This document shows positions 9,508 to 24,660 of a stretch of DNA of 25,769 nt, one piece after another. The DNA is from Deltaproteobacteria bacterium (lineage in GTDB: Bacteria; Desulfobacterota; Desulfobacteria; Desulfobacterales; B30-G6), in NCBI GenBank assembly GCA_003647375.1, contig QMMS01000026.1:1-25769 (forward strand), given 5' to 3'. A model generated the notes under the pieces. It was given only the letters and a program-made list of their open reading frames with translations, was not told the origin of the DNA and made no database searches. The translations under genes and the position numbers were made by a program. Position 1 is the first letter of the stretch. Each line of letters begins with the position of its first letter.

Positions 9508-9534
9508 TAGGGACGTCTATGATTTTATGCTTTT
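9508..9534 (+). repeat. Left inverted repeat of the RAYT element
   Basis: TAGGGACGTCTATGATTT followed by TATGCTTTT. With one gap and few mismatches it is the reverse complement of 10569-10597 beyond the transposase gene. Both contain the palindromic core GACGTC. The pair brackets the transposase gene and probably marks the element's ends or its recognised REP-like sites. Confidence 0.8.
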
Positions 9535-9565
9535 CATCGAAGATTGAATGTGGTACTTATCAATC

Positions 9566-10570: not shown

Positions 10571-10597
10571 AACGCATTAAATCATAGACGTCCCCTA
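10569..10597 (-). repeat. Right inverted repeat of the RAYT element
   Basis: On the minus strand it reads TAGGGGACGTCTATGATTT then AATGCGTTTT, matching the left repeat at 9508-9534 with about three differences and one extra G in each half. It begins inside the transposase stop codon, so gene and element end are fused. Confidence 0.8.
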
Positions 10598-11678: not shown

Positions 11679-12683
11679 TCAATACCAGGTAATATCTTCC
11701 GGTAAATAGCAGAGTCGGATCTTTTGGCCGGGGTAGAGGGTGCGGCTGTGCGCGTTTTCCGGTGACAGCTTGGCGGTAATTGCCTGATTAGCTGCCTGAA
11801 CAATGATGATGATTTCCTGGGTGTGTTTTTCCAGAACCAGCCTTGTGACAATTCCTTCGATCATACAGGCATTTTTGTCTGTGGCCGGTAGCATGTTTTT
11901 CGGGTTGATGATGGCAATGGCATCTTCCGAAGGGGGGCATGGCACTTCAAGCGCTTGACCATCCTGGAGTTCTTTAACCCATTTACCGGGTGTTGGTTCA
12001 GACCATGGGCCGAAAATAAAATTCTGACGGCCGGTGCCAAAAAACCGTCCCCTGAACAAATGAACCACATGTTCGCAGATATCATACAGCCATTCCCAGT
12101 CATGGCTGGCAATCACCAATGTCGTACCCCACTTTTTCTGGGCCATAAGGGCGGTGTCCTTGATTATCTGGGCACTGGCGGCATCGATGCTGGCTGTGGG
12201 TTCGTCCAGTAGAAGCACTTCCGGTTTTAGAATCAGGCGTGCGGCCAGGGCTACACGCTGAGTTTCGCCGCCGGAAAGTTCATACCATTTCCGATGCGAA
12301 AAATCATTTCCGGACAATCCCACAAGAGACAAAGCATCGTGCACACGATTTGAGAGGTCGTGGATATCCCTCCGTAGCTCGAGTCCGTATGATATGTTTT
12401 TGAAGACCGAGCGCTTCATGAGGTAGGGTTCCTGGGTCAGGAGCGTAACCTGAAATCTGACATTTTCCGCAAAGGGTTCGGTAGATTCACCTTTGAAAAG
12501 GATATTGCCTTTCCCGGGCTTGTCGATGAAAGCCAGCATTTTAAGCAACGTGCTTTTGCCGCTGCCGTTGGGGCCGATGATACCGGTGATAGTACCCGGT
12601 TGGATAGAAAAATTGTCGATGTCCAGGGCCGGAAGGCCATTATAATGGTGCTGGAGATTATTTATTTGATAAAGATTTTTCAT
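11679..12683 (-). CDS. tupC: Tungstate ABC transporter ATP-binding protein TupC
   Basis: A 334-residue ATPase. Walker A is GPNGSGKST (37-45), the Q-loop is at Gln84, the signature LSGGE at 136-140, Walker B VLLLDEP at 156-162 and the switch His at 194. After the ATPase core (about 1-225) comes a C-terminal domain of ~110 residues ending in a beta-rich segment (GIVTRLVLEKHTQEIIIIVQ, 283-302, and GQKIRLCYLPEDI), which resembles a Mop/TOBE oxyanion-binding domain. Together with TupA and TupB upstream it forms a tungstate importer. The start ATG 12683 has no clear Shine-Dalgarno because a copy of the intergenic repeat element runs up to it; coupling to tupB is not possible across the 106-bp gap, so its translation signal is odd. 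Confidence 0.92.
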   Translation of the reverse strand: MKNLYQINNLQHHYNGLPALDIDNFSIQPGTITGIIGPNGSGKSTLLKMLAFIDKPGKGNILFKGESTEPFAENVRFQVTLLTQEPYLMKRSVFKNISYGLELRRDIHDLSNRVHDALSLVGLSGNDFSHRKWYELSGGETQRVALAARLILKPEVLLLDEPTASIDAASAQIIKDTALMAQKKWGTTLVIASHDWEWLYDICEHVVHLFRGRFFGTGRQNFIFGPWSEPTPGKWVKELQDGQALEVPCPPSEDAIAIINPKNMLPATDKNACMIEGIVTRLVLEKHTQEIIIIVQAANQAITAKLSPENAHSRTLYPGQKIRLCYLPEDITWY

Positions 12684-12789
12684 AGCTTTTTAGGGGCTTA
12701 GGCTGTAGACTGTTAGGCGCCCATCGCGGATCGCTTTCAGCGACCCTTGGACCCTCGAACCCTTGTATCCCCCTCCACCCCTCAGACCC
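12684..12789 (-). repeat. Intergenic repeat element, short copy (between tupB and tupC)
   Basis: Read on the minus strand it begins soon after the tupB stop and contains AAGGGTTCGAGGGTCC. A hairpin with arms TCGCT/AGCGA and loop GAA follows, then the terminal block GCGCCTAACAGTCTACAGCC with TAAGCCCCTAA. The first and last blocks match the copy at 18025-18367 (GGGTTCGAGGGTCC and GCGCCTAACAGCCTAC). The middle T/G-rich block and the hairpin array of the longer copies are absent. Confidence 0.75.
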
Positions 12790-13476
12790 TTATCTTTTAT
12801 TCACCAACGCCACCGACAGGTTCACCGCAAAAGCGATCATCAAGAGGACCAGCCCGAGCGCGATTCCCATGCCAAAGAGTCCCTTGTTGGTTTCCAGGGC
12901 AATGGCCGTTGTAATGGTCCGGGTGTGCCATTTGATGTTGCCGCCCACCATCATGGAGATGCCCACTTCCGTCATGACTCTGCCGAAGGCTGTCAATGCT
13001 GCCGCCGTAATGCTGAAGCGAACCTCCCAGAGGCTACTGAGGAGAAGCTGTCTTCGGTCGGCACCCAGTGAAATGAGGGTGGTCCTCAGATGGCGGTCCA
13101 TGCTTTCGACGGCTGCTGCTGTCAAGGCAGTGACTATGGGAAGCGCCAGTATGGTTTGACCGATGGCGATACCCGGCAGTGTAAATAACAGGCCCATGTG
13201 CCCCAGGGGGCCTCGGTTGGACAGGAACGCGTAGACAACAAGCCCGATGAAAACCGTCGGCAGCGCCAGGGCGGTGTCCACCAGAAGGCGCAACGGTCGT
13301 TTGCCCTTAAATTCGAAGTGGCCGAGCATAAATCCCAGAGGGATGCCCATCAACAGACTGGCTGTCATGGAATAGCTCGTCACGCGAACCGTCACGAAAA
13401 TGGCGGAATAGGTTTGTTCATCTCCGCTGAACAGGAGTTGAAACGCCTGAATAAATCCTGTGAAGATGTAGTCCAT
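12790..13476 (-). CDS. tupB: Tungstate ABC transporter permease TupB
   Basis: A 228-residue inner-membrane permease of the molybdate/tungstate/sulfate type. About six hydrophobic helices are seen, beginning with VTVRVTSYSMTASLLMGIPLG. The MetI-family coupling loop is ESMDRHLRTTLISLGADRRQ, and the TupB-typical GRVMTEVGISMMVGGNI and TITTAIALETNKG follow. ATG 13476 is chosen as the start; a GTG at 13491 is in frame but lies inside palindrome P2. No strong Shine-Dalgarno precedes either. A 235-bp gap with repeat element and promoter-like boxes separates it from tupA, so tupBC may have its own promoter besides read-through from tupA. It transports WO4(2-) delivered by TupA. Confidence 0.93.
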   Translation of the reverse strand: MDYIFTGFIQAFQLLFSGDEQTYSAIFVTVRVTSYSMTASLLMGIPLGFMLGHFEFKGKRPLRLLVDTALALPTVFIGLVVYAFLSNRGPLGHMGLLFTLPGIAIGQTILALPIVTALTAAAVESMDRHLRTTLISLGADRRQLLLSSLWEVRFSITAAALTAFGRVMTEVGISMMVGGNIKWHTRTITTAIALETNKGLFGMGIALGLVLLMIAFAVNLSVALVNKR

Positions 13477-13499
13477 ATAAATTCGTTCCACGAATTTAT
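13477..13499. promoter_or_regulatory. Operator-like palindrome P2 at the tupB start
   Basis: Perfect inverted repeat with arms ATAAATTCGT (13477-13486) and ACGAATTTAT (13490-13499) around TCC. It abuts the tupB ATG (13476) and overlaps a TATAAT box (13503-13498 on the minus strand). A protein bound here would cover the -10 region or start site. It belongs to the P1-P2-P3 set. Confidence 0.65.
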
Positions 13500-13526
13500 T
13501 ATACGCGACGTTGTCGCTATTTAACC
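13498..13526 (-). promoter_or_regulatory. Putative tupB promoter
   Basis: On the minus strand a consensus TATAAT occupies 13503-13498. Seventeen bases upstream lies GGTTAA, a poor -35, suggesting dependence on an activator or weak activity. The spacer is almost filled by palindrome GCGAC-GTT-GTCGC. Confidence 0.45.
13505..13517. promoter_or_regulatory. Second operator-like palindrome, tupB copy
   Basis: GCGAC, GTT, GTCGC. It is the exact reverse complement of the 13-mer at 14582-14594 before tupA and has the same 3-bp spacer. It lies between the candidate -35 and -10 of tupB, a classic repressor position. A candidate TaoR site (inference). Confidence 0.6.
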
Positions 13527-13559
13527 TGCATTTTTAGCCTGGGGTATTTTCCGCAATAC

Positions 13560-13726
13560 ATTCAACACACATCGGATGTCATTTGCCTTTCAGGCGTCAC
13601 TTACACTTCGTGTGTCATTAGCCTACGGGCGTCATTTATTGTTGCTCATAGCCTGGATCTTTCTAAAACTTAACACCTAAAACCTAAAACGATTTGGTAG
13701 CCTTCTCGACCCCTTGAACCCTGTCT
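13560..13726 (-). repeat. Intergenic repeat element with hairpin array (between tupA and tupB)
   Basis: On the minus strand it starts just after the tupA stop with AGGGTTCAAGGGGTCGAG (near 13722-13705). A T/G-rich block follows, GTTTTAGGTTTTAGGTGTTA (from 13690). Next is GCTATGAGCAACAATAAATG (13652-13633). Four units with starts at 13635, 13618, 13600 and 13582 (17, 18 and 18 nt apart) follow. Each is ATGAC or GTGAC plus a mini-hairpin: GCC/GGC, ACAC-GAA-GTGT, GCCT-GAA-AGGC and ACAT/ATGT. Order and blocks match 18025-18367. Confidence 0.8.
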
Positions 13727-14554
13727 TTACTTCGCATTCGGTGTAAACAACTGCTGTCCCAGCAGGCGGAAGTTCTTGATCATTTCCTGTGCTTCGGTGC
13801 CGGCCATCCAGTCGCTGAAGGCCATGGCCAGATCAAACTTTGCATTGGGACAGTTGCCGGTGTTGATGGCAATGGCGCTGTACTGGTTGAGAAGAATGGC
13901 ATCGCCTTCCACAATGACCTTCAATACAGGATTGCCGCCGCTGTTGTGGCTGTACTTGATATAAGTTCCCCTGTCCGTCATGGTATAGCCGTTGCGCTGT
14001 TCGGCGATTTGAATGGTTGCAAGCATCCCCTGGCCGGTCTGGATGTACCAGGGATCTTTATCCGGGACAGCCATGCCGGCATTTTTCCAGAGCAGGATTT
14101 CCTTTTTGTTGGTGCCGGAGTTATCCCCTCTGCTGACAAACAATGCTTTTGACTTTTGGACACCCATCATGGCCTTGCCAATGGAGAGGCCTTTGATTCC
14201 GGCAGGGTCGGCCGCAGGCCCGATGATCACAAAATCGTTATACATGAGCTCCCGACGTTTGGTGCCGAAACCGGCATCGATAAATTTCTTTTCAGCGCCG
14301 GGTGCGTGGACCAGCAGGATATCCACATCGCAGTTTTGGCCCATTTTCAACGCCTTGCCGGTTCCGATCGCGGTCCAGCGCAAATCGATACCGGTGGCTT
14401 TTGTAAATGCCGGCGCCAGATAATCGAGTAACCCGGTATTGTCTGTACTTGTGGTGGTGGCCATCATCAGTACCTTCTCCGCTCCCAGCGAAACACCACT
14501 GAACATTCCCATCAAGAAACAACCGATAAGTCCCGCAACAAGTACTCTTTTCAT
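13727..14554 (-). CDS. tupA: Tungstate-binding periplasmic protein TupA
   Basis: A 275-residue solute-binding protein for tungstate. A signal peptide covers residues 1-25 (ending SGVSLGA). The mature chain opens with EKVLMMATTTSTDNTGLLDYL, in which the TTTS motif (33-36) is the TupA oxyanion site. The second diagnostic motif is SRGDNSGTNKKE (141-152). The end, FSDWMAGTEAQEMI, is also typical. TupA binds WO4(2-) far more tightly than molybdate in known cases. The start ATG 14554 has AAAGGAG 7 nt upstream. It lies directly downstream of taoR, with a 64-bp gap holding two palindromes and a promoter-like TTGACG. Tungstate would supply W-dependent formate dehydrogenases or aldehyde oxidoreductases encoded elsewhere. 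Confidence 0.95.
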   Translation of the reverse strand: MKRVLVAGLIGCFLMGMFSGVSLGAEKVLMMATTTSTDNTGLLDYLAPAFTKATGIDLRWTAIGTGKALKMGQNCDVDILLVHAPGAEKKFIDAGFGTKRRELMYNDFVIIGPAADPAGIKGLSIGKAMMGVQKSKALFVSRGDNSGTNKKEILLWKNAGMAVPDKDPWYIQTGQGMLATIQIAEQRNGYTMTDRGTYIKYSHNSGGNPVLKVIVEGDAILLNQYSAIAINTGNCPNAKFDLAMAFSDWMAGTEAQEMIKNFRLLGQQLFTPNAK

Positions 14555-14572
14555 CTAATGCTCCTTTCTAAA

Positions 14573-14598
14573 TTTAAAAAAGCGACAACGTCGCGTCA
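14573..14598 (-). promoter_or_regulatory. Putative tupA promoter and ribosome site region
   Basis: On the minus strand TTGACG (about 14597-14592) is followed 17 nt later by TTAAAT (about 14574-14569). The palindrome GCGAC-GTT-GTCGC fills most of the spacer, and P3 lies just upstream. AAAGGAG then precedes the tupA ATG. This layout suggests repression through the spacer site. Confidence 0.5.
14582..14594. promoter_or_regulatory. Second operator-like palindrome, tupA copy
   Basis: GCGAC, AAC, GTCGC. It is identical in reverse complement to 13505-13517 in front of tupB. It lies between the candidate -35 and -10 boxes of tupA. Two exact copies of a 13-mer palindrome, each at a tup promoter, point to a shared regulator. 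Confidence 0.62.
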
Positions 14599-14623
14599 AA
14601 TAAATTTGTGAAACAAATTTATT
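14599..14623. promoter_or_regulatory. Operator-like palindrome P3 between taoR and tupA
   Basis: Perfect inverted repeat with arms AATAAATTTGT (14599-14609) and ACAAATTTATT (14613-14623) around GAA. It includes the taoR stop codon (14619-14621) and sits just upstream of the tupA -35. It is the third member of the P1-P2-P3 set. As RNA it could also act as a hairpin at the end of taoR. Confidence 0.62.
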
Positions 14624-15524
14624 GGGGGTATCTCATTTTTCCCCGTTCGCCGATATCGTAACCATCAAGACCCTGGGCAATCTTAAGGAACGCATCTTCA
14701 TGCAGGAGTGTCTGGAAATACTGTACTCCCTGCTCGAAAAAGCGTTCCCGGGATATCAGCAGATCATATCGTTCCCATCGCAGGGGCATGAAGTCGAGAC
14801 CCAGAAGCGACGCGATCGGCCGGATGCCCGGGCCGGCATCGGCATGCCCGGACAATATCTCGAGGCCGATATCCATGTGCCGGTTTACAATATGGTGGTA
14901 CCCATGGATTTTATCACCCGTGAGACCGGCGGTTTTCAATTCCTTGTCAAAAAGAAGGCGGGTACCTGTTCCCAGATCTCGATTGACGACCCGAACGCCT
15001 TTTTTCCCGAGATCGGCTATGCTGTTTATGTGCCTGGGATTATCTTTCCCCAGAAGGATTCCCTGCTCACGCTTGCAAAAATTGACAACGGCCGGCATTT
15101 TATGGAGCTCTTCAGAGGCAAAGGAAAAATTATATTCATTTTCGTTATCCTGAAGCAGGTGGCTCGATGCGATATGACACATATCCCTTTTCAGTGCCCT
15201 TAATCCGCCCATGCTGCCCAGGTTCCCGAAAACAGCCAGGTGATCCGGGTAGCGGGTGTTGAACAGGGAGATGGTTTTGTCCAGAAGCAGATCGTTGCTG
15301 CCGGCGATGATGAGCAGACCCTGGTAAGGCGGCAGTCGATTTCCTGCTTCCGGATAATTTTTGGTGTTGGTTTCAATCCACTGTTCCACGAGGTGCTTTG
15401 GAAACAGCCATTTGCCTGTCACTTTGGTGGCCGGCAATCCTTTTTCCGACACCAGGGTATATACCATTTTCTCGTTGATGTTGAGGAAAACGGAGACTTG
15501 TTTGGTGGTCATCAGGTCTTTCAT
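14619..15524 (-). CDS. taoR: TaoR-family transcriptional regulator (excisionase-type HTH + periplasmic-binding-protein-like domain)
   Basis: A 301-residue cytosolic regulator. Residues ~5-52 (MTTKQVSVFLNINEKMVYTL, then KVTGKWLFPKHLVEQWIE) are an excisionase/MerR-like winged helix. Residues ~70-295 resemble a ModA/TupA-like type 2 binding-protein fold without a signal peptide (GLLIIAGSNDLLLDKTISLF, RVVNRDLGTGTRLLFDKEL, HADAGPGIRPIASLLGLDFM). This architecture is that of the family containing TaoR, which in Desulfovibrio vulgaris represses tupABC and activates a tungsten aldehyde oxidoreductase gene when tungsten is plentiful. Its place directly before tupA supports the same role. ATG 15524 has GGAT upstream; Met5 is an alternative start. 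Whether it senses W or Mo cannot be read from sequence. Confidence 0.85.
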   Translation of the reverse strand: MKDLMTTKQVSVFLNINEKMVYTLVSEKGLPATKVTGKWLFPKHLVEQWIETNTKNYPEAGNRLPPYQGLLIIAGSNDLLLDKTISLFNTRYPDHLAVFGNLGSMGGLRALKRDMCHIASSHLLQDNENEYNFSFASEELHKMPAVVNFCKREQGILLGKDNPRHINSIADLGKKGVRVVNRDLGTGTRLLFDKELKTAGLTGDKIHGYHHIVNRHMDIGLEILSGHADAGPGIRPIASLLGLDFMPLRWERYDLLISRERFFEQGVQYFQTLLHEDAFLKIAQGLDGYDIGERGKMRYPQ

Positions 15525-15717
15525 CAGTGGCGGATCCTTTCTATGAAAACTGGGTAGTGCAACAACGAGTTGTCTGCAGCGCCCTGTTGAGCCATTATTG
15601 TCAACACAGCCAGCACTTATATTTAAAGTTATTTTTCGTCAATAATTTTATTTTTCGTTTGGAATAAAATCTTATAAATAACCCATGCTAACGATAAATA
15701 ACATTTATGAAATTTTT

Positions 15718-15983
15718 CGGGATTATAACCCAAAAGAAAGTTGGTGGTATCGCGGACGGATAATCCCTGTGCGAACGTGAAAAACTCGCTCCCAAGAGAC
15801 CGTAATGCCGAACAGGGCCATATCTTTAAGATGAATTTTATTTTTTGAATGCCGGATGTGTTTATCTGGTTATATTTACGATCTGCTCGGCATAACGGGC
15901 TCTATGGACCTCAGACAGTTTCACTTTCGCACAGGGATCACCCATCCGCTTTCGGGGGTACCGTTTTATTGGTTATAATCCCG
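15718..15983. repeat. Long imperfect inverted repeat between taoR and pit
   Basis: Two ~100-nt arms face each other across 67 nt. Three blocks are conserved in order. The first is CGGGATTATAACC (15718-15730) with its exact complement at 15971-15983. The second is 31 nt at 15752-15782 pairing with 15919-15949 (27/31), core ATCCCTGTGCGAA. The third is CCGTAATGCCGAACAG (15800-15815) pairing with 15883-15898 (14/16). Block 1 to block 2 distance is 21 nt in both arms. No protein is supported in it. It may be a MITE-like palindrome, two facing copies of a structured RNA, or a taoR leader. I do not recognise it as a known riboswitch. The rest of 15525-16110 holds no gene. Confidence 0.8.
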
Positions 15984-16110
15984 ATTTTTTTTAAAAAGGG
16001 CAGGCTTTTTTTGCGTTGCCTTAACTTTTTTCGAATGGTATGGACGGTGCGAACCTGAACATTTGTGGATGGGCACTAGTTAATTTTGTATCAGTGTACA
16101 ACGTGAAAAT

Positions 16111-17343
16111 ATGTCGGCTGAATACCTGATTCTCATCATTGGTTTTGTGTTTGGTTTTTATATGGCCTGGAACATCGGTGCCAATGATGTTGCCAATTCC
16201 ATGGCATCGGCTGTGGGCGCCAAGGCGATTACCATCCGCCAGGCTGTATTCATTGCAGGTATTCTGAATATCGTGGGCGCGACCTTTATCGGCTCGCATG
16301 TCACCAACACCATTCGTAAAGGCATCGTTTCCACCGATGTGATGTCGGATCCCCATATTGCTTTGGCCGGTGCACTCGCGGCCCTGCTGGCAGCCGCGTT
16401 ATGGGTCAGTTTTGCCACCTGGCGCTCTCTGCCGGTTTCGACAACCCATTCCATCGTCGGGGCCATGATCGGCTTTGGTATTATGGCGGGCGGTTTTTCA
16501 GTGATCAATTGGGGGAAACTGGGAGCGGTGGCCCTGAGTTGGGTCATCTCGCCTGTTTTCAGCCTCGTTATCGCGTTTGTCATGTTCAAAGTGATTGTCA
16601 GGGTCATCCTTTCAAAAGATGCCGTATTCGAACGATCCATACGCTTCTCGCCCTATTTTATAGGGATTGCCATATTCGTGGTGGTTCTTTCGTTTCTCTT
16701 TAAAACCCCCCTCGGTAAAAAATTTTCCATATCAATGCCCATGGCTTTGATCCTGTCGTTTGTTTTAGCAGCTGTTTTGGGGTATATTGGAAAAATATTG
16801 TTGCGGAAATTTCTAGTGGAAAAACAGGGTAACGGGAACGGCGCCGAAGAGGTTTTTCGAAAAATTCAAATTGGCACATCCTGCTATGTTGCCCTGGCGC
16901 AGGGTGCCAATGATGTGGCAAATGCCATTGGCCCTCTGGCTGTGATTTACTTTCTGGTCAAGACGGGTACCATCGGTGCCAAAGTTCCTGTGCCAATTTT
17001 TCTGCTAATGTTTGGTGGTGTCGGTATTGCCCTAGGTATCGGTATGGCCGGGAAGCGGGTGATGACGACCATCGGAACCAAGATTACCACGTTGACCAAT
17101 ACCCGTGGGTTTTCCGTCGATTTTGCTGCTGCCACAACGGTCTTGCTGGCTTCGAAGCTGGGACTACCCGTTTCTACGACCCATGCGGCCGTGGGTGGGG
17201 TTCTGGGTGTCGGTCTTGCGCGGGGGCTCGAGGCTGTTAATTTCAGGATCATATTTCAGATCATGATCTACTGGGTTCTGACGGTTCCGGCGTCAGCCAT
17301 TACCAGTATGATTATTTATAAAATTATCCGGATCTTTTATTAA
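16111..17343 (+). CDS. pit: Inorganic phosphate transporter, PiT family
   Basis: A 410-residue inner-membrane carrier for phosphate (or metal-phosphate) coupled to cations. The family signature appears in both inverted halves: NIGANDVANSMASAVGA (about 21-37) and QGANDVANAIGPLA (about 265-279). Paired PVSTTH motifs (SLPVSTTHSIVGAMIG and GLPVSTTHAAVGGVLG) mark the other half of each repeat. Ten or more hydrophobic helices are seen, with a central hydrophilic loop near residues 225-255 (FLVEKQGNGNGAEEVF). ATG 16111 has only a weak purine stretch upstream. It is followed after 12 nt by a DUF47 gene, the usual pairing for low-affinity Pit systems. It is divergent from taoR. Confidence 0.94.
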   Translation: MSAEYLILIIGFVFGFYMAWNIGANDVANSMASAVGAKAITIRQAVFIAGILNIVGATFIGSHVTNTIRKGIVSTDVMSDPHIALAGALAALLAAALWVSFATWRSLPVSTTHSIVGAMIGFGIMAGGFSVINWGKLGAVALSWVISPVFSLVIAFVMFKVIVRVILSKDAVFERSIRFSPYFIGIAIFVVVLSFLFKTPLGKKFSISMPMALILSFVLAAVLGYIGKILLRKFLVEKQGNGNGAEEVFRKIQIGTSCYVALAQGANDVANAIGPLAVIYFLVKTGTIGAKVPVPIFLLMFGGVGIALGIGMAGKRVMTTIGTKITTLTNTRGFSVDFAAATTVLLASKLGLPVSTTHAAVGGVLGVGLARGLEAVNFRIIFQIMIYWVLTVPASAITSMIIYKIIRIFY

Positions 17344-17355
17344 AGGAGAGGGGCC

Positions 17356-18024
17356 ATGAGAATACCTTTCTTATCCATGTTCATGACATCGCCGTTTGAC
17401 GGAATGCAGGAACATGCAGAGGTTGTAAAGGACTGTGCATGGGCATTTCAGGAGGCAGTGGAGTGCCATATATCTTATCAATGTTCCCGTTTTGACTCCC
17501 TCCGGGGAGATATTATCGAGATGGAGAGAGAGGCTGATGCCATCAAACGGAGAATTCGGGGGCATATTCCAAAAGGTACGATCATGCCCATCGATAAATT
17601 TCAGCTGTTTCGATATTTAAGAGAGCAGGACAGTGTATTGGATTCAGTGGAGCATGCCCTGGACTGGCTTTCCCTCAGACCTGATGAAAAATATCCAAAG
17701 GAGATCCAGCAAGACATTTTCCATCTGGTGGAAACGGTGGTGGACCCTATCGATGAACTGAGCAAAATGATCGTGGAAGCCAGGAAATATTTCCATAGCT
17801 ATAAAGAAGACCAGCGTATTGTCGTCAAGGATATCATCCGGACGCTGCGTTTACAGGAACGGGAAGCCGATCGTGTGGAACATACGATAAAGGCGAAAAT
17901 ATTCAACATGGATGTCGATCCGATTACCGTTTATCATGTCGTCAGGCTGGCTGAAATTATCGGTTCCATTGCAGATCATGCTGAAAATGCCGGTGACATG
18001 ATGCGGGCGATGGTGGCAAAGTAA
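17356..18024 (+). CDS. DUF47 / PhoU-like phosphate transport accessory protein
   Basis: A 222-residue all-helical cytosolic protein of the DUF47 (TIGR00153) family, distantly related to PhoU. Repeated acidic clusters that bind metals in this fold are present: EMEREADAIKRRI (about 55-67), LQEREADRVEHTI (about 172-184) and ADHAENAGDMMRAM near the C-terminus. AAAGGAG before ATG 17356 gives a strong start. The 12-bp spacing to pit means one transcript. These proteins are thought to tune Pit transporter activity; the mechanism is not established. A copy of the hairpin-array element follows the stop directly. Confidence 0.92.
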   Translation: MRIPFLSMFMTSPFDGMQEHAEVVKDCAWAFQEAVECHISYQCSRFDSLRGDIIEMEREADAIKRRIRGHIPKGTIMPIDKFQLFRYLREQDSVLDSVEHALDWLSLRPDEKYPKEIQQDIFHLVETVVDPIDELSKMIVEARKYFHSYKEDQRIVVKDIIRTLRLQEREADRVEHTIKAKIFNMDVDPITVYHVVRLAEIIGSIADHAENAGDMMRAMVAK

Positions 18025-18367
18025 GAAGGGCAGGGTTCGAGGGTCCGAGGTTTGGAGGGGAAACCAATCCGTTTTAGATGTTAGGTTTTAGGTATTAAGT
18101 TCAACTGTTAGCACTTAACTGGGGTGTTAAGTTTTAGGTTTTTAGTGTTAGGCAGGTCCCGAGTTAAAAGCTATGAGTAACAATAAATGTCGCGCGCAGC
18201 GCTAATGTCGTCCGAAGGACAAATGTCTATCAATGACGCCCGCAGGGTAAATGACGCGCGAAGCGCTAATGTCGTCCGATAGGACAAATGACAGCCGGAG
18301 GCTAAATGTCGCCTACAGGGCAAAATGCGCCTAACAGCCTACAAGCTGAACCCCTAATAGCCTATCC
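18025..18367 (+). repeat. Intergenic repeat element, longest copy, with 18-nt hairpin array
   Basis: It starts 4 nt after the DUF47 stop: GGCAGGGTTCGAGGGTCC, then T/G-rich repeats such as GTTAGGTTTTAGGTATTAAG (from 18080). GCTATGAGTAACAATAAATG (18170-18189) comes next. ATG triplets at 18187, 18205, 18223, 18233, 18251, 18269, 18288, 18306 and 18325 head the units (18 nt apart except one 10-nt and two 19-nt steps). Stems: GCGC/GCGC, GTCC/GGAC, (short unit), GCCC/GGGT, GCGC/GCGC, GTCC/GGAC, AGCC/GGCT, GCCT/GGGC, with loops of 3-4 nt. It ends GCGCCTAACAGCCTAC then AACCCCTAATAGCC. It overlaps the hydrolase stop by a few bases. No gene is supported inside. Confidence 0.85.
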
Positions 18368-19180
18368 GTTTAATAGGCCGGCATCCCTGAGAAACCCTCT
18401 CACATCTTCCCAGAACTGAGGCCAATCCGGCGGACAATCGTTATGACCACATTCATAGGAGAGGAACCGGGCGTTCGGGGACGCCTGGTAAAGGGATTTT
18501 CCGTGGGCATAGGGAATGACCTCATCGTGCTTTCCGTGCAGGATTAATACCGGGCCCTGAAATGTTCGTACAGCAGCAAGGTTGTCAAACGGATCGCGAA
18601 CCAAAAAAGTGGGAACGAGATACCTTGATGCAAACGAACGGACACTCGTGAAGGTGGACATCAATATCAGTGCTGCAGCCCGACGATGTTTTAACAAGGA
18701 ACAGACGGCACCGCCACCCATGGATCGCCCGTACAGAATAATCCTTGAGGCATCGATATCTTTTCGGCGGGTCATGAGATCATAAGCGGCTACAAAAGTT
18801 TCTGTGATGCCGGCCTGGGACGGCGATCCTTCGGATCGACCATAACCCGGAAACTCCACCAGCAAGGTCCCGATACCCCAATGCGAAAATTGGCGCATTT
18901 CCTGGACACAGAAGTCGATACGTTCTGCATTCCCGTGGGCAAATATGACCAGCGGAGCGGGGTGATTATCAGATTGTTCTGCCGGCGGTAAAAACCATGC
19001 CTCCACTTTTCCAAACTTCGTTTGAATCCAGAGGGTTTCCAGTGACGGTATTTCCTGACGTTCTTCCTGGATCAAAGACGGCATCATGTACCGGGGAAAC
19101 AGCATGTGTCTTTGGGCCAGAAAAAGAAGCAGGCAATATCCGGCATATAGCACGAGAGACCAGAGAACCACCTTCAGCAT
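18362..19180 (-). CDS. Membrane-anchored alpha/beta hydrolase (ABHD13/Bem46-like serine hydrolase)
   Basis: A 272-residue hydrolase. Residues 1-24 (MLKVVLWSLVLYAGYCLLLFL) form a membrane anchor, so the catalytic domain is probably on the periplasmic face. Ser153 in the nucleophile elbow GRSMGGG, Asp219 in LHGKHDEVIP and His246 in CGHNDCP make the triad. The oxyanion-hole motif is FAHGNAE (80-86). The architecture matches Bem46/ABHD13-type hydrolases; natural substrates are generally unknown (esters, lipids). ATG 19180 follows AGGGGG at 10 nt; an in-frame ATG at 19213 lacks a ribosome site. It converges on the pit-DUF47 operon, with the hairpin-array element between. Confidence 0.87.
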   Translation of the reverse strand: MLKVVLWSLVLYAGYCLLLFLAQRHMLFPRYMMPSLIQEERQEIPSLETLWIQTKFGKVEAWFLPPAEQSDNHPAPLVIFAHGNAERIDFCVQEMRQFSHWGIGTLLVEFPGYGRSEGSPSQAGITETFVAAYDLMTRRKDIDASRIILYGRSMGGGAVCSLLKHRRAAALILMSTFTSVRSFASRYLVPTFLVRDPFDNLAAVRTFQGPVLILHGKHDEVIPYAHGKSLYQASPNARFLSYECGHNDCPPDWPQFWEDVRGFLRDAGLLNG

Positions 19181-19350
19181 GGTATGTGTTCCCCCTGAGT
19201 AAATGGAAAACATAGACTTATCCCTGATATTTCACAAACCTGATCGGGCCTTGCGCGAGTTACGTCCTCCCGAAATTCGAGGAAAAAATGAAATATCTAT
19301 TTTACTCATAAGTTGAGCGATTGTCGAGGCTTGAAATCTGCGTTATGATT

Positions 19351-19379
19351 TTGACAATAGATCAAGATACCGCTATTAT
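19351..19379 (+). promoter_or_regulatory. Strong sigma-70-type promoter, possible leaderless start
   Basis: TTGACA (19351-19356), 17-bp spacer, TATTAT (19374-19379). The expected transcription start, about 7 nt after the -10, coincides with the ATG at 19386. No Shine-Dalgarno lies between box and start codon, so the transcript may be leaderless. Confidence 0.75.
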
Positions 19380-19385
19380 ACACAA

Positions 19386-20285
19386 ATGCCAATGACAATA
19401 CACCACGTCAAGAAAAGCCTGTTGATCGTTTTCATGATAGGCGCCGTTGTTTTGGCGGCCTCCGGATATGCAGACCACCTGGTGGATGCTGTCGGCATGG
19501 GAAGAATTACCGATGCCAACCTTATCTATCTGAATGATGCTTTTGATCGGAGCCTGGCGGGCTTCCTGGTGTTGTCGGGTATAAAGAGCGGACTGGCCAT
19601 CATCGAAGGCTCTGAAGTGGGTATCGGATTCAATCTGGAAATCGGTGATATTGTGCAGGCGGTTTACGATTATGTGGACGTAGCCTGGAAAGCAGCATTG
19701 GCCGGCGGTACGATCCTGCTGATGACCCGGATGTGTCTGGAAGCAGTGGCTTTAATCGATCATTGGTGCCTGGCGGCGATGTTATTGGGGGTCGGGGTTT
19801 TTTTGATTTTTCGCTGGTTTTTAGCGGACTGTCAACGAATGACCCAGGTTGTTCGAGAATCGACTATGTTTCTGGTTGTTCTGACCTTGATTTTATATGT
19901 GATCCTCCCCATATCTATTACCGGGGCCTCATTTTTATCGAAAAGAATCACACAGCCGATCATCGAAGAGACCCAGACAGGTTTTGAAGACATCCACAGA
20001 GAATTTTCTCCTGGTTACCTGAGCGAGGGGTTTTTCCCGGAAGATGTCAACGAAGGATCGCTTTTTCCGGGTTTTGATTTCAAGGCAAAATATGAGAGCA
20101 CCAAGGAGCGTATTCAATTCATCGGTACATTTTTCAAGGACAGGACCCGCCACATGGCTGTTCTGACGTTGAAGCTGGTCGCCGGATACGTATTTGACTG
20201 CATTATTTTTCCCTTAACTTTTTTCGTGGTGCTTTATCTCTTTACCAAAAATCTGGTCAATTTTCTCAGCAGGGCTATCAGCTGA
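19386..20285 (+). CDS. Membrane protein of unknown function
   Basis: A 299-residue protein I do not recognise. An N-terminal hydrophobic segment (LLIVFMIGAVVLAASGYA, about 12-29) could be a signal or anchor. Further helices are likely at about 100-115 (AALAGGTILLMTR), 128-146, 160-178 (FLVVLTLILYVILPIS) and 265-290 (VFDCIIFPLTFFVVLYLF). Between the last two is a ~85-residue hydrophilic region with conserved-looking acidic and aromatic residues (GFEDIHREFSPGYLSEGFFP). A start at ATG 19392 is possible. The racemase gene follows 37 nt later on the same strand, suggesting cotranscription. No function is proposed. Confidence 0.82.
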   Translation: MPMTIHHVKKSLLIVFMIGAVVLAASGYADHLVDAVGMGRITDANLIYLNDAFDRSLAGFLVLSGIKSGLAIIEGSEVGIGFNLEIGDIVQAVYDYVDVAWKAALAGGTILLMTRMCLEAVALIDHWCLAAMLLGVGVFLIFRWFLADCQRMTQVVRESTMFLVVLTLILYVILPISITGASFLSKRITQPIIEETQTGFEDIHREFSPGYLSEGFFPEDVNEGSLFPGFDFKAKYESTKERIQFIGTFFKDRTRHMAVLTLKLVAGYVFDCIIFPLTFFVVLYLFTKNLVNFLSRAIS

Positions 20286-20322
20286 AAGTTTGCAACCGCA
20301 AGGTTGCCATGGAGCGGCAATA

Positions 20323-21018
20323 ATGAAAACCATTGGTTTGCTGGGCGGCATGAGTTGGGAATCTTCCCTGGAATATTATCGGATCATCAATCAGTTGGTT
20401 AAGGAACGACTGGGCGGACTGCATTCCGCTAAATGTCTGTTGTATTCGGTGGATTTTCAGGAAATCGAAAGCCTTCAACACCGGGGATTATGGGATGAGG
20501 CCGGGAGACTCCTGGGGGAGGCGGCGAGAGGTCTCCAGAAGGGTGGGGCGGATTTTCTGCTGATATGCACGAATACCATGCATAAGGTTGCGCCTGTTGT
20601 CCAGCAGCATATCAGCATGCCACTGCTCCACATTGCCGATCCCACCGCAAAGAGCGTACTGTCGCGGGGTATCAGGAAAATTGGATTGCTGGGGACGCGG
20701 TTTACCATGCAAGAGGACTTCTATAAGGGAAAGCTGGTGCATGACCACGGACTGGAGGTGTTGACACCCATTGATGCGGACATGGATATGATTCACCAGG
20801 TAATTTTTGATGAACTGGTTCTGGGTCTGATCAAGGACATCTCAAAGGGAAAATATATTGCGGTTATCAAACGTCTGGAAGCAGCCGGAGCAGAAGGTGT
20901 GATTCTGGGGTGTACGGAGATCGGTTTGCTCGTGAAAGACCAGGACAGCCCCATCCCCTTGTTTGACACCACTTTTATCCATGCCGAAGCGGCAGTGGAA
21001 TATGCCCTGACAACATAG
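20323..21018 (+). CDS. Aspartate/glutamate racemase family protein (YgeA-like)
   Basis: A 231-residue PLP-independent racemase that works with two cysteines. Cys82 in ICTNTMHK and Cys197 in ILGCTEIGLL are the catalytic pair. The N-terminus MKTIGLLGGMSWESSLEYYR is characteristic of the aspartate racemase/YgeA group, in which some members act on several amino acids such as homoserine. The length is typical. GGAG sits 8 nt before ATG 20323, and the frame is open further upstream without a ribosome site. It would make a D-amino acid for cell-wall or regulatory use, or scavenge one; the sequence does not decide. Confidence 0.92.
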   Translation: MKTIGLLGGMSWESSLEYYRIINQLVKERLGGLHSAKCLLYSVDFQEIESLQHRGLWDEAGRLLGEAARGLQKGGADFLLICTNTMHKVAPVVQQHISMPLLHIADPTAKSVLSRGIRKIGLLGTRFTMQEDFYKGKLVHDHGLEVLTPIDADMDMIHQVIFDELVLGLIKDISKGKYIAVIKRLEAAGAEGVILGCTEIGLLVKDQDSPIPLFDTTFIHAEAAVEYALTT

Positions 21019-22407: not shown

Positions 22408-22578
22408 ATTTGATAATGGTAGAGTATCAGGTAGGGATTTTGTTCTTTACCGAAAGAAATGACCTTTTTATTTGTGTAGTTAATTTCATATTTATTGAGC
22501 AATAGGATCCATAGATGATTCATATGTTTGAATTATCTACCTCGGGATTAATTGCCTTTGGGGCCTGTCAACACGTTC

Positions 22579-22716
22579 TTACACTGAAAGACCAGCTTTT
22601 TCCCCAATTATCTCCAGCAATTTTGGCCCCTTTTTTGCATTAAAGTTTGGAGGTTGATCACTTTCTATACAGTTTAACTTTTTATAAAAGGTTTTGGATA
22701 TGAATATTAGGTCACT
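22579..22716 (-). pseudogene. Possible C-terminal gene remnant
   Basis: A 45-codon open stretch on the minus strand ends at TAA 22579-22581. Its last residues read FNAKKGPKLLEIIGEKAGLS V, preceded by FYKKLNCIESDQPPN. The residue usage is protein-like, but there is no start codon or ribosome site, and a TGA closes it upstream. It overlaps the 5' end of the acyltransferase gene. It may be the tail of a gene truncated when the AT-rich patch arrived, or chance. Apart from this and the hairpin at 22382, 22291-22699 holds nothing I can support. Confidence 0.25.
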
Positions 22717-23824
22717 TCAAATGACAAATTCACTTAAATGGATCAATTGTTTAATTGACATTTGTAATAGCCTGAAGAGTCGAATCATACACATCATGGA
22801 AAGAGTGTTTTCGATACTTAGAAAAGAAGTATGGCTCCTGGAAGCAGTCGATGCAAATGATCTGAATAACAATTCCGTCCTGTTTATCGGCAATACCCAA
22901 GAAATGCACTATATAAGCAGGCTATTTTTTAATGATTATACCCAGCGGCTTATAGGGCGCCACTGGTTATGGCAAGTACTGTTTCCAAAAAGAAAGATAC
23001 ATAAAACCTGCTCATTTAGTGTAATCCAGACCGGTTGGAAGAGCGACAAATTTATTCGATCAAAAAGGATGTTCTGTGTCCCAACCTGGGTATTTGGCAG
23101 TGTGGATTTAACCGCGGATTTTGATGCGCAACTGAGAAATAATAAAAGTGCTAAAAGAAACTTGAGGAAAGTCAAAAACGGTCATTTTGAAGTTGAAGTA
23201 TCATCAGATCCCTTATTGTTTGAGGAGTTTTATTATAAAATGTATCAGCCGTACATATATAAAAGATACGGAGAGTGCGCTATAGATATGAGTTATAATC
23301 GTCTGAAAGGGCAATTTGTAAATGGTAGCGAAATATTATTTGTAATTAAGGAGTCTCAACGTATTGCTGGCACAATGATTTGTTATAAGGACGATAATAC
23401 AGTAGCTTACGAACTGGGTGTAAGGGATGGCGATTTTCGCTGGGTTGAACAAGGTGCGATCAGTGCGCTTTACTTCAATACAATAAACTACTGTCGTTCC
23501 AAAGGGATCAAGAAGCTAAGTCTTGGAGGGTCGCGGCCTTTTTTATCGGATGGTGTATTAAACTACAAACTAAGAAACTGGAACATGAAAGTCGATGATT
23601 ATTCAAAAACCTTCTATTTTCTCATCAAACAACATAGGCAAAGTAATTTCGCTCAGGATTTTTTAAGTAAAAATCCGTTCATATCTCTTAAAAACGGAGA
23701 TATGGTGGTTAATACTTTTTATCTAAAAAAGGACAAAGAGAACAATGTGACAAAGGATACAGAGGCTAAATTTATTAAATATGGACTTCCTAAGGTAGAT
23801 GTTCATTGTTTTGACGTTAAATAG
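22700..23824 (+). CDS. GNAT-superfamily acyltransferase (FemAB/BioF2-like), AT-rich
   Basis: A ~374-residue protein whose C-terminal two thirds (about 130-330) resemble the acetyltransferase-6/FemAB-type GNAT fold. Support comes from FDAQLRNNKSAKRNLRKVKN, typical of the helix before the acyl-acceptor site; FEEFYYKMYQPYIYKRYGE; AGTMICYKDDNTVAYELGVRDGDF; and GAISALYFNTINYCRSKGIKKLSLGGSRPFLSDGVLNYKLRNW, where the last part matches the pseudo-GNAT fold end. Such proteins add acyl or aminoacyl groups to cell-surface glycans or lipids. The first ~90 residues are unassigned. ATG 22700 is chosen over a TTG at 22694; later Met codons are possible. Codon use is distinctly more AT-rich than the flanking genes, which suggests horizontal acquisition. 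Confidence 0.7.
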   Translation: MNIRSLQMTNSLKWINCLIDICNSLKSRIIHIMERVFSILRKEVWLLEAVDANDLNNNSVLFIGNTQEMHYISRLFFNDYTQRLIGRHWLWQVLFPKRKIHKTCSFSVIQTGWKSDKFIRSKRMFCVPTWVFGSVDLTADFDAQLRNNKSAKRNLRKVKNGHFEVEVSSDPLLFEEFYYKMYQPYIYKRYGECAIDMSYNRLKGQFVNGSEILFVIKESQRIAGTMICYKDDNTVAYELGVRDGDFRWVEQGAISALYFNTINYCRSKGIKKLSLGGSRPFLSDGVLNYKLRNWNMKVDDYSKTFYFLIKQHRQSNFAQDFLSKNPFISLKNGDMVVNTFYLKKDKENNVTKDTEAKFIKYGLPKVDVHCFDVK

Positions 23825-23881
23825 TAAAATATGGCCTTTTATCAAAACCGGTAGGTAACCCTCATCTTTTCAAGTGCGTTA

Positions 23882-24046
23882 TCAGATTTTGATTGGACGA
23901 TCACCAGGGAAACTGCCATCGTAAGAAATGGTTTCAACTTTACCACTAAAATCAAAAGAAAACAGAGTTGTCGAATTTGTCATTATATTACTCATTTCTC
24001 CGTCTGCCGATAGATAATTCTAATCTTTATCATTGCACATTTGTCA
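23882..24046 (-). pseudogene. Decayed 3' extension of the exported protein gene
   Basis: After the TGA at 24044-24046 the same frame meets a TAG nine codons later. It then runs 37 codons from ATG 23995 (GGAG nearby) through TLFSFDFSGKVETISYDGSF to a TGA at 23882-23884. The residues look like a genuine C-terminal beta-rich tail. Either the upstream gene carries two nonsense codons, or a separate 37-residue peptide is made. Nothing else is seen in 23825-24043. Confidence 0.35.
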
Positions 24047-24508
24047 TTTGGATCTGTCCAATAAAATGACACTAAGTCCTGCAGGTACTGAAGTAGAGTA
24101 TTTTTTTATTGCACTTATACTATAATAATGTATCTCACCAAAAGTCGGAATTGGTTCTTTCTTATCCATAAAATTCATTTCTTCTGCCGAATTATAATTC
24201 TCCATTTTTTCATCGAATTTAAGCTTACTTCTTAATGAGATCTCCTTGGCAACTAACCCATCGACATCCTTCTTCCTAATCAATTTTATTATTTCCCTTA
24301 TATCATCATCCTTAAGTACCACTTTTGATTTATCTATCTTAAATTTATCAACTTTTGATTCGTCATATTTCCATTCAAGTTCAATGTTTTCCTTGAATGC
24401 AACCCATTTTCCCGGTACATACTCCCAATAATCAGGAAGTTTTGCCATCTGATCGGAACAGCAAAAGATGAAGAGGGATGCCAAACATACAGCTATTAAT
24501 TTCTTCAA
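24044..24508 (-). CDS. Exported protein of unknown function, probable TTG start
   Basis: A 154-residue protein starting at TTG 24508, chosen because AAGGAG (24521-24516) lies 7 nt upstream and the product then begins MKKLIAVCLASLFIFCCSDQ, a clean signal peptide. Two cysteines at the cleavage point (FIFCCSDQ) suggest a lipoprotein, though the lipobox is not canonical. The mature chain is lysine- and glutamate-rich (ESKVDKFKIDKSKVVLKDDD), with a segment IREIIKLIRKKDVDGLVAKEI that looks like a helical repeat. No family was recognised. The gene is AT-rich like the acyltransferase next to it. Its reading frame seems to continue past the stop (separate entry), so the protein may be truncated. Confidence 0.68.
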   Translation of the reverse strand: MKKLIAVCLASLFIFCCSDQMAKLPDYWEYVPGKWVAFKENIELEWKYDESKVDKFKIDKSKVVLKDDDIREIIKLIRKKDVDGLVAKEISLRSKLKFDEKMENYNSAEEMNFMDKKEPIPTFGEIHYYSISAIKKYSTSVPAGLSVILLDRSK

Positions 24509-24660
24509 TTTAGGTCTCCTTACAATATGGACAGATAGCAATTGTCACCTCGGCTGGAACCGATGATAGATCATCTTACTAATTGGAAGTTAAGAAAATA
24601 TTGCCGATATGCCTTGGTTGTTCCCAAGGTGCTACGGGAGCTATTATCAATGCAAGATTG

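What the first reader, a model, noticed from the sequence alone, without database searches (positions are those of the whole stretch)
18170..18331. 18-nt periodic array of mini-hairpins with changing stems
Nine ATG-headed units follow one another, mostly exactly 18 nt apart. Seven of eight complete spacings hold a 4-bp stem and 3-4 nt loop. Stem sequences differ (GCGC, GTCC, GCCC, AGCC, GCCT) but pairing is retained by matched changes, with G-T only twice. This is the mark of structure kept under constraint or of a copying process that preserves palindromes. It is not CRISPR (no spacers, no long repeat) nor a simple tandem repeat.
Basis: seen in the sequence. Interest (0 to 1): 0.75.

Follow-up and report, generated by a model that had tools for sequence, protein, structure and literature searches.

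The report
Intergenic arrays of tagged DNA mini-hairpins
Between two ordinary genes lies a row of tiny DNA hairpins, each behind a short fixed tag, and it belongs to a class of repeated, fast-changing gap-filling DNA that turns up in at least three distantly related groups of bacteria.

Summary
The array has 7 ATG-anchored mini-hairpins; no more than 2 occurred in any of 5,000 dinucleotide shuffles. A second composite of the same make lies at 13566-13722, minus strand. Relatives occur in MAGs titled Deltaproteobacteria, Bacteroidales/Prolixibacteraceae and Calditrichaceae.

They share a grammar: tag AATGAC/AATGTC, a stem, a GNA loop closed by C-G, one spacer base, so unit length is 10 + 2 x stem (14, 16, 18, rarely 20 nt). 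Stems differ yet pair: 91% Watson-Crick against 59% after shuffling. Opposite-strand arms diverged from a centre in 34 of 34 pairs.

Between sister species whole units appear and vanish far more often than stems change in place. In one genome 54 of 59 matches are one identical 24-mer, and all 18 copies examined sit in mosaic intergenic cassettes.

I read this as a DNA-level intergenic mosaic repeat built from very stable single-strand DNA mini-hairpins: REP/NIME-like in kind, but failing the tests for GTAG and CGTC REPs. What copies it is unknown. Y1 transposases are present but do not discriminate and are rarely adjacent.

The parts
18032..18050 (+). Leader module, 9-nt-like repeat (AGGGTTCGAGGGTCCGAGG), 7 nt after the stop codon of the PhoU_div gene
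   Evidence: conserved at the same site in G008
18071..18151 (+). Run of degenerate 7-nt repeats (GTTTTAG-like)
   Evidence: absent at the orthologous site in G008
18169..18185 (+). Head AGCTATGAGTAACAATA, directly before the first unit; variants precede units in many arrays of G008
18186..18203 (+). Unit 1, 18 nt, stem GCGC, loop GCA
18204..18221 (+). Unit 2, 18 nt, stem GTCC/GGAC, loop GAA
18222..18231 (+). Unit 3, 10 nt, hairpin-less AATGTCTATC; the same 10-nt type (AATGACNATN) occurs in Bacteroidales and Calditrichaceae arrays
18232..18249 (+). Unit 4, 18 nt, stem GCCC/GGGT (one G-T), loop GCA
18250..18267 (+). Unit 5, 18 nt, stem GCGC, loop GAA; identical at the orthologous site in G008
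18268..18286 (+). Unit 6, 19 nt, stem GTCC/GGAC, 4-nt loop GATA (GNNA); G008 has loop GCTA
18287..18304 (+). Unit 7, 18 nt, stem AGCC/GGCT, loop GGA; G008 has loop AAA
18305..18323 (+). Unit 8, stem GCCT/GGGC (one G-T), loop ACA
18324..18361 (+). Degenerate last unit and tail module (CGCCTAACAGCCTACAAG...CCTAATAGCC); the tail alone recurs at other sites of G008
13566..13722 (-). Second composite: leader (13722-13704), GTTTTAG run (13690-13663), head CTATGAGCAACAATA (13651-13637), then units 13636-13566 with new stems ACAC/GTGT and GCCT/AGGC; between genes matching PBP_like_2 and BPD_transp_1
   Evidence: in G008 the orthologous gap has the leader but no hairpin units

Best explanation
The array is part of a DNA-level intergenic mosaic repeat. 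Its basic unit is a strand-specific element: a 5' tag (AATGAC, or AATGTC in this lineage) followed at once by a mini-hairpin with a C-GNA-G (rarely GNNA) apex and a freely varying but paired stem. Units sit in tandem in arms that diverge from a centre towards the neighbouring genes, mixed with hairpin-less AATGAC units and other short repeat modules, and the whole gap turns over by gain, loss and copying of units and blocks, including dispersal of composite blocks to other gaps. Shown: the grammar, the pairing, the divergent arms, the position at gene edges, unit turnover, one dispersed composite in G008 and a many-copy cassette in G206. Inferred: that the hairpin works as folded single-stranded DNA (the loop rule is that of exceptionally stable DNA mini-hairpins), and that new units arise by a single-strand process (replication template switching or an HUH-like enzyme) that makes both arms together. 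Not identified: the enzyme.
For: Pairing: 178 18-nt units, 91% Watson-Crick over pairs 1-4 against a shuffle mean of 59% and maximum of 63% in 500 shuffles; 17-29% when slid; 113 distinct units 87% against 54%. The search pattern fixed pair 4 and the loop, but not pairs 1-3 (85, 93, 90% paired). Length rule: 14-nt units 90 of 96 with a 2-bp stem at the expected place, 16-nt 49 of 69 (3 bp), 18-nt 132 of 178 (4 bp), 20-nt 6 of 19 (5 bp). Loops: of 242 3-nt-loop hairpins with stem of 3 or more behind a tag, 205 are GNA and 230 closed by C-G; of 16 with 4-nt loops 9 are GNNA (6% expected for G..A). Genomes picked without any hairpin condition: G207 10 of 14 perfect 4-bp stems of five kinds plus 2 with one flaw, G216 5 of 5, G206 54 of 59 one identical unit. 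Loop chemistry: GNA/GNNA loops with at least two G-C pairs, GCGAAGC Tm 78 C (PMC4686876, passages). Divergent arms 34 of 34, convergent 0. Array 3' end within -40..+30 nt of a called gene edge 53 of 82, 5' end 10 of 78. Turnover between sister genomes; window against G008 at the same site: 3' units shared, 5' units and 7-nt run not. Dispersed composite in G008: C278, 127 bp, 87%. Cassette in G206: 18 copies. No significant strand bias: sense to antisense 30 to 21, p 0.26; G-T to A-C mispairs 18 to 14, p 0.60.
Against: No enzyme was identified. No target-site duplication or clean empty site was defined. The nearest-neighbour energy model sees no special stability in the units or in the + strand over the - strand, and gives 0 kcal/mol for the 14-nt unit, so the DNA-hairpin argument rests on published chemistry. 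Hairpins are not universal: of 997 tag sites in array context only 271 carry a stem of 3 or more, and G306/G345/G244 have mainly hairpin-less arrays. No gradient of tag decay along arrays was found (27 head-better, 28 tail-better, 48 ties of 103), which gives no support to growth from one end. Arrays looked absent from 42 of 43 loci fetched for other reasons, so they are not genome-wide filler. Most genomes are MAGs.
Confidence: 0.6

Rival explanations
1. Replication slippage plus template switching alone: arrays expand and shrink by slipped-strand mispairing, and imperfect hairpins are corrected to perfect ones by copying one arm from the other. No dedicated enzyme; similarity between phyla by gene transfer of seeds.
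For: Tandem arrays with changing unit number; identical units more frequent within an array (7% at lag 1, 12% at lag 2) than between arrays of a genome (2.8%); template switching is known to create and maintain perfect stems (PMC8794818, abstract and opening text).
Against: Most neighbouring units are not identical, whereas the tag and the C-GNA-G apex recur in distant phyla; slippage does not explain 34 of 34 divergent arms or the G206 cassette.
Confidence: 0.2
2. REP/REPIN elements in the strict sense, mobilised by a Y1 HUH transposase (TnpA_REP/RAYT) that reads the tag as guide and the hairpin as structure.
For: Same layout: 5' guide at the foot of a hairpin, strand-specific, intergenic, paired inverted arms (compare PMC6006769 and PMC8266576, passages). 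Y1_Tnp in 11 of 11 array genomes and 6 of 7 more genomes with tag matches. A Y1_Tnp gene lies in the window at 9548-10570. In G006 an array lies 150 nt before a Y1 open frame.
Against: Y1_Tnp is in 132 of 146 genomes of the order, 128 of the 142 without arrays, so presence does not discriminate; G216 has arrays and no Y1 hit, but it is only 1.2 Mb. None of 30 fetched Y1 loci has a core unit; of 44 fetched in all, one has a run of two tags and none a longer one. Tag is not GTAG/GTGG and stems are 2-5 bp rather than 7-20.
Confidence: 0.13
3. RNA-level element: transcribed hairpins that bind a protein or tune mRNA ends or translation.
For: Arrays abut start or stop codons and lie between co-directional genes in 51 of 77 cases with both neighbours called; RNA fold of the window array z -1.66, 11 of 200 shuffles as good; one weak terminator-like match inside the array on the minus strand.
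Against: Orientation flips at the centre of each gap whatever the genes do; sense to antisense 30 to 21, p 0.26, though the upstream neighbour is on the array strand in 47 against 30, p 0.07; G-T against A-C mispairs 18 to 14 shows no clear RNA-strand preference; no Rfam match in the window.
Confidence: 0.06
4. Chance or low-complexity artefact.
For: None beyond the shortness of the stems.
Against: Shuffles; zero backward-pattern controls in all 11 genomes; conservation at the orthologous site of G008.
Confidence: 0.01

Closest known systems
GTAG-tagged REPs, BIMEs and REPINs (with TnpA_REP/RAYT)
   Same: Extragenic palindromes with an unpaired tag at the 5' foot, strand-specific, many copies, paired inverted arms, variable stems
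   Different: Tag AATGAC/AATGTC not GTAG/GTGG; stems of 2-5 bp (one 7-bp unit in the G206 cassette) instead of 7-20; head-to-tail tandem units; no adjacent transposase found
CGTC-tagged REPs (Di Nocera 2013, PMC3733652)
   Same: The reverse complement of a unit that begins with stem base G reads ...CGTCATT; said to occur in Bacteroidetes among five phyla; no dedicated transposase known
   Different: CGTC REPs have 8-9-bp stems, 4-5-nt loops and mostly head-head dimers with negligible head-tail dimers; here 2-5 bp, GNA loops and tandem runs
Neisserial dRS3 repeats and intergenic mosaic elements (NIMEs; PMC3898611 passages)
   Same: Short palindrome-bearing repeats interleaved with other modules in intergenic arrays of hundreds of bases
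   Different: dRS3 is ATTCCC(N8)GGGAAT with a fixed 6-bp terminal repeat; here the stem varies and the tag and loop are fixed
d(GCGAAGC)-type GNA/GNNA DNA mini-hairpins (Hirao, Yoshizawa; via PMC4686876 passages)
   Same: Loop rule, C-G closing pair; the 14-nt unit contains the GCGNAGC heptamer itself
   Different: Those are synthetic oligonucleotides studied for stability; here the motif recurs in genomic arrays

Membership tests
GTAG REP | GTAG/GTGG tetranucleotide 0-2 nt before the hairpin | tested here: not met
   Tag at the foot is AATGAC (232 of 849 triloop hairpins in array context have exactly that 6-mer, the commonest); definition from PMC6006769 passages
GTAG REP | Basal stem of 7-20 nt fully paired | tested here: not met
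   Stems of 2-5 bp; a 7-bp unit only in the G206 cassette
GTAG REP | Y1 transposase gene flanked by the repeat | tested here: not met
   0 of 30 fetched Y1 loci with core units; 44 loci in all, one run of two tags; one exception among array-selected loci, L163
CGTC REP | Stem of 8-9 bp, loop of 4-5 nt | tested here: not met
   definition from PMC3733652 section 6
CGTC REP | Mostly head-head dimers, head-tail negligible | tested here: not met
   Units run head-to-tail within each arm; only the arms are inverted
REPIN/BIME (works like) | Dispersed intergenic copies in inverted pairs | tested here: met
   Divergent arms 34 of 34; dispersed composites
NIME/dRS3 | ATTCCC(N8)GGGAAT | tested here: not met
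   Consensus differs; pattern from PMC3898611 passages
CRISPR | Repeats separated by unique spacers of similar length | tested here: not met
   Units follow directly with one spacer base
Simple tandem repeat/VNTR | Near-identical neighbouring units | tested here: not met
   Identical at lag 1 in 48 of 663 unit pairs; TRF gives 69% matches for the window array
Described RNA family (Rfam 15) | Match above gathering score | tested here: not met
   0 matches in the window
Exceptionally stable DNA mini-hairpin | GNA or GNNA loop on at least two G-C pairs | tested here: inconclusive
   Loop met in 205 of 242 and 9 of 16, C-G closing 230 of 242; second pair is often but not always G-C; stability itself not measurable here
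MITE or transposon | Terminal inverted repeats and target-site duplication | not tested
   Ends of the G206 cassette were read by eye only; no empty site available

The most novel reading that the evidence does not exclude
A phylum-spanning class of self-propagating single-strand DNA elements: a six-base tag plus an exceptionally stable GNA mini-hairpin is all that a dedicated, still unknown single-strand enzyme needs, and each new hairpin is made by fold-back copying of its own first arm, so that any stem sequence comes out paired. Arms grow in opposite directions and fill the gap between genes.
Probability: 0.22. Interest if true: 0.87.

Novelty: new variant of a known kind. Interest (0 to 1): 0.68.

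Why it matters
If right, genomes of at least three distant bacterial groups carry intergenic DNA written in one small grammar whose only fixed parts are a tag and a single-strand DNA fold. That would be a natural setting for the GNA mini-hairpin known mainly as a chemical curiosity, a fresh test bed for how paired stems originate (mutation plus selection against arm copying), and a source of intergenic variation between close relatives. It also warns that covariation, usually taken as proof of functional RNA, can arise in a DNA repeat.

Tried and rejected
Y1 transposase as the obvious driver: present in 11 of 11 array genomes, but in 132 of 146 genomes of the order and not flanked by units. 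Polarity: the window/G008 comparison (3' units shared, 5' part different) suggested growth at the centre, but tag decay shows no gradient, so I do not claim it. Genus of G011: only itself is held. Gaps beside the NuoN-like gene in G405 and G403 were printed but the loci were not turned to one orientation, so I draw nothing from them. Plasmid BLAST of a flanking gene gave nothing; viral contigs gave no match to the two-unit pattern. Rfam and tRNA scans of the window were empty. The terminator scan found 10 sites against 6.1 expected in 13400-18700, one of them weak and inside the array on the minus strand. Hydrolase-based relatives search gave an orthologue only in G008 (80%), the other three family genomes only distant homologues.

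Weak rows kept or dropped: of the 16 loci, the Betaproteobacteria MAG (L006) and Scatolibacter (L008) have a single repeated unit type and I do not count them as secure members. Of the 11 of 146 genomes matching, seven have one match each and look like chance; the four others are exactly the four genomes held of G008's family. In one search, 132 of 247 genomes match but the backward control also matches many, so I give no prevalence; clear excess is seen for example in G206 (59 against 3), G306 (42 against 0), G011 (22 against 2), G002 (16 against 1), G207 (14 against 1). Of the five genomes looked at, G359 (0 of 5) and G396 (0 of 9) do not show the hairpin. One search left out L091, which was the orthologous array locus itself. 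In one search all units were kept, including those from G005 and G007.

Literature: 12 unit or module strings searched in full text gave one unrelated paper; topic searches gave REP, NIME and template-switch papers but, as far as listings and the passages read show, not this element. I read sections 6 and 14 plus passages of PMC3733652; passages only of PMC12306157, PMC6006769, PMC8266576, PMC11292364, PMC4686876, PMC3898611; abstract and opening of PMC8794818. The rest were seen as listings. The guide logic of IS200/IS605 is as read in passages; other chemistry remarks on GNA loops are recalled.

Full report
What is there. At 18186-18334, between a PHO4/PhoU_div gene pair on the plus strand and an alpha/beta hydrolase gene on the minus strand, nine ATG-headed units follow one another. 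Seven carry a 4-bp hairpin; spacings are 18, 18, 10, 18, 18, 19, 18, 19. No shuffle of 5,000 came near this. The gap is filled from stop codon to stop codon with short-period modules: a 9-nt leader, a 7-nt GTTTTAG run, a head AGCTATGAGTAACAATA, the units, and a tail. The same succession leader, GTTTTAG run, head, hairpin units recurs on the minus strand at 13722-13566 with other stems.

Relatives. A strict two-unit pattern found 16 stretches in one genome per species of the GTDB-based collection: MAGs titled Deltaproteobacteria (two isolates), Bacteroidales, Bacteroidia and Prolixibacteraceae, Calditrichaceae, one Betaproteobacteria MAG and Scatolibacter. A looser pattern gave 136 matches in the 11 genomes I followed and none for the backward control; the last two genomes have only 1 and 2 matches and are doubtful. 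In a sample of 146 genomes of the order of isolate Ww484 (G008), convincing matches occur only in the four held members of its family. Window 12464-21012 is syntenic with G008 contig C135 at 78-86% identity in its long pieces, so the window comes from a close relative.

Grammar. In 178 18-nt units the four pairs are 91% Watson-Crick; shuffling the 3' letters gives 59% (maximum 63%), sliding gives 17-29%. Loci were found with a pattern that fixes pair 4 and the loop, so pairs 1-3 (85, 93, 90%) are the fair test. Unit lengths step by two: 14 nt with 2 bp (90 of 96), 16 with 3 bp (49 of 69), 18 with 4 bp (132 of 178), 20 with 5 bp (6 of 19). Hairpin-less units also occur: AATGACC, AATGACYY, AATGACNATN, AATGACNATTG. 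Of 997 tag sites in array context 271 carry a stem of 3 or more; of the 242 with 3-nt loops 205 are GNA and 230 closed by C-G, and of 16 with 4-nt loops 9 are GNNA. C-GNA-G makes up 305 of 849 triloop hairpins in arrays and 231 of 18,579 outside them. As an independent test, five Bacteroidales-order genomes with at least five matches to a pattern blind to the hairpin were inspected: G206, G207 and G216 obey the rule, G359 and G396 do not.

Layout. Runs of the tag on opposite strands within 150 nt are always divergent, 34 of 34. With a simple gene caller, the 3' end of an array lies within -40..+30 nt of a gene edge in 53 of 82 cases, the 5' end in 10 of 78. In Prolixibacteraceae, Calditrichaceae and Bacteroidales MAGs the two arms can fill a gap from one gene to the next. 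Orientation relative to genes is not significantly biased: sense 30, antisense 21, convergent or divergent 26. Twenty sampled neighbours are mostly host genes (OTCase, EPSP synthase, NADH:quinone oxidoreductase/Mrp subunit, transporters and others, five without a Pfam match at the cut-off) and one Y1 transposase. Of 43 loci fetched for Y1 or hydrolase matches, 133 kb in all, one has a run of two tags.

Turnover. At the orthologous site G008 shares the window's last units (GCGC unchanged; two further stems unchanged with changed loops; the fourth decayed differently in each) but lacks the first units and the GTTTTAG run. At the window's second site G008 has the leader and no hairpin units; at 20270-20330 G008 holds repeat modules where the window has a short gap. 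In the sister genomes G009 and G402 (about 91% DNA identity over long syntenic pieces), six blocks were aligned: 10 perfect-stem units align without gaps (9 same stem, one C-G to T-G, none two-sided), 21 are gapped or absent in the sister and 16 are not alignable. So units mostly come and go whole. In G008 a 127-bp copy of the composite lies elsewhere (C278, 87%); one of its units differs by a two-sided change (GTCC/GGAC to TTCC/GGAA) and two by one-sided decay. In G206, 54 of 59 matches are the identical 24-mer. In all 18 copies with enough flank, from 20 regions fetched, it lies in a mosaic cassette: loose motif counts give the left terminal part in 13, the core spacer in 12, an optional CTTGG hairpin module in 8, a 7-bp unit in 11 and 0-10 left-arm units. 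Most of these copies run up to an ATG.

How it most likely works. The tag sits only at the 5' foot, and the loop is the one that makes DNA, on the AATGAC strand, unusually stable (GNA or GNNA on at least two G-C pairs; PMC4686876, passages); the 14-nt unit contains the GCGNAGC heptamer itself. The standard energy model does not show this. Orientation flips within each gap whatever the genes do, and G-T and A-C mispairs are equally frequent (18 and 14), which argues for DNA rather than a fixed RNA strand. New units appear complete with perfect stems, which fits a single-strand copying step. Whether this is template switching at replication forks or a dedicated enzyme is open. The Y1 HUH family fits in principle but presence does not discriminate (132 of 146 genomes) and adjacency was seen once (L163).

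Place among known things. It resembles REPs (tag at the foot of a hairpin, inverted pairs) and neisserial intergenic mosaics (modules in arrays), but fails the tag, stem-length and transposase-adjacency tests for GTAG REPs and the stem, loop and arrangement tests for CGTC REPs. I call it a new variant of a known kind. Twelve sequence strings searched in the paper library found no description.

Noticed in passing
window 9510-10596: A Y1_Tnp (IS200-like) gene (9548-10570) flanked by an inverted repeat GGGACGTCTATGATTT / AAATCATAGACGTCCC; no AATGAC array beside it.
   Followed up: partly
window 13566-13722: Second composite array on the minus strand between genes matching PBP_like_2 and BPD_transp_1 families; G008 lacks the hairpin units there.
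   Followed up: yes
window 18032-18151 and 13690-13663; many G008 loci (L105-L120): Other short-period intergenic modules in this lineage: GTTTTAG heptamers, AGGGTTCGAGGG nonamers, AGCCATAAGC-like decamers, each varying between orthologous gaps.
   Followed up: partly
L015 about 1235-1370; L288 and L283 (G402): Further low-complexity gap-fillers beside the arrays: a divergent CACCACAAAGGACACGG-type inverted repeat, runs of TGAAAAATGAAAAATG, and TACGCAATACG repeats where the sister genome has an AATGAC array.
   Followed up: no
G306, G345, G244 loci L215-L228: Bacteroidales-order genomes with mainly hairpin-less AATGAC arrays (8- and 10-nt units), and G359 with AATGACCTAAAAGACCTA: possible relatives or ancestors of the hairpin arrays.
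   Followed up: partly
L339-L358 (G206): Many-copy intergenic cassette of several hundred bases whose right end often runs up to the start codon of the next gene; may carry a promoter.
   Followed up: partly
L008 (Scatolibacter) 7303-7356: Three near-identical AATGTCGCTCGTAGCGCC units just before a gene with an ABC-transporter ATPase-like start; doubtful member.
   Followed up: no
window 22500-24540: AT-rich stretch (33-38% GC in most 500-bp windows against about 45-50% elsewhere) with a 376-aa frame (22694-23824) without a Pfam match; perhaps acquired.
   Followed up: no
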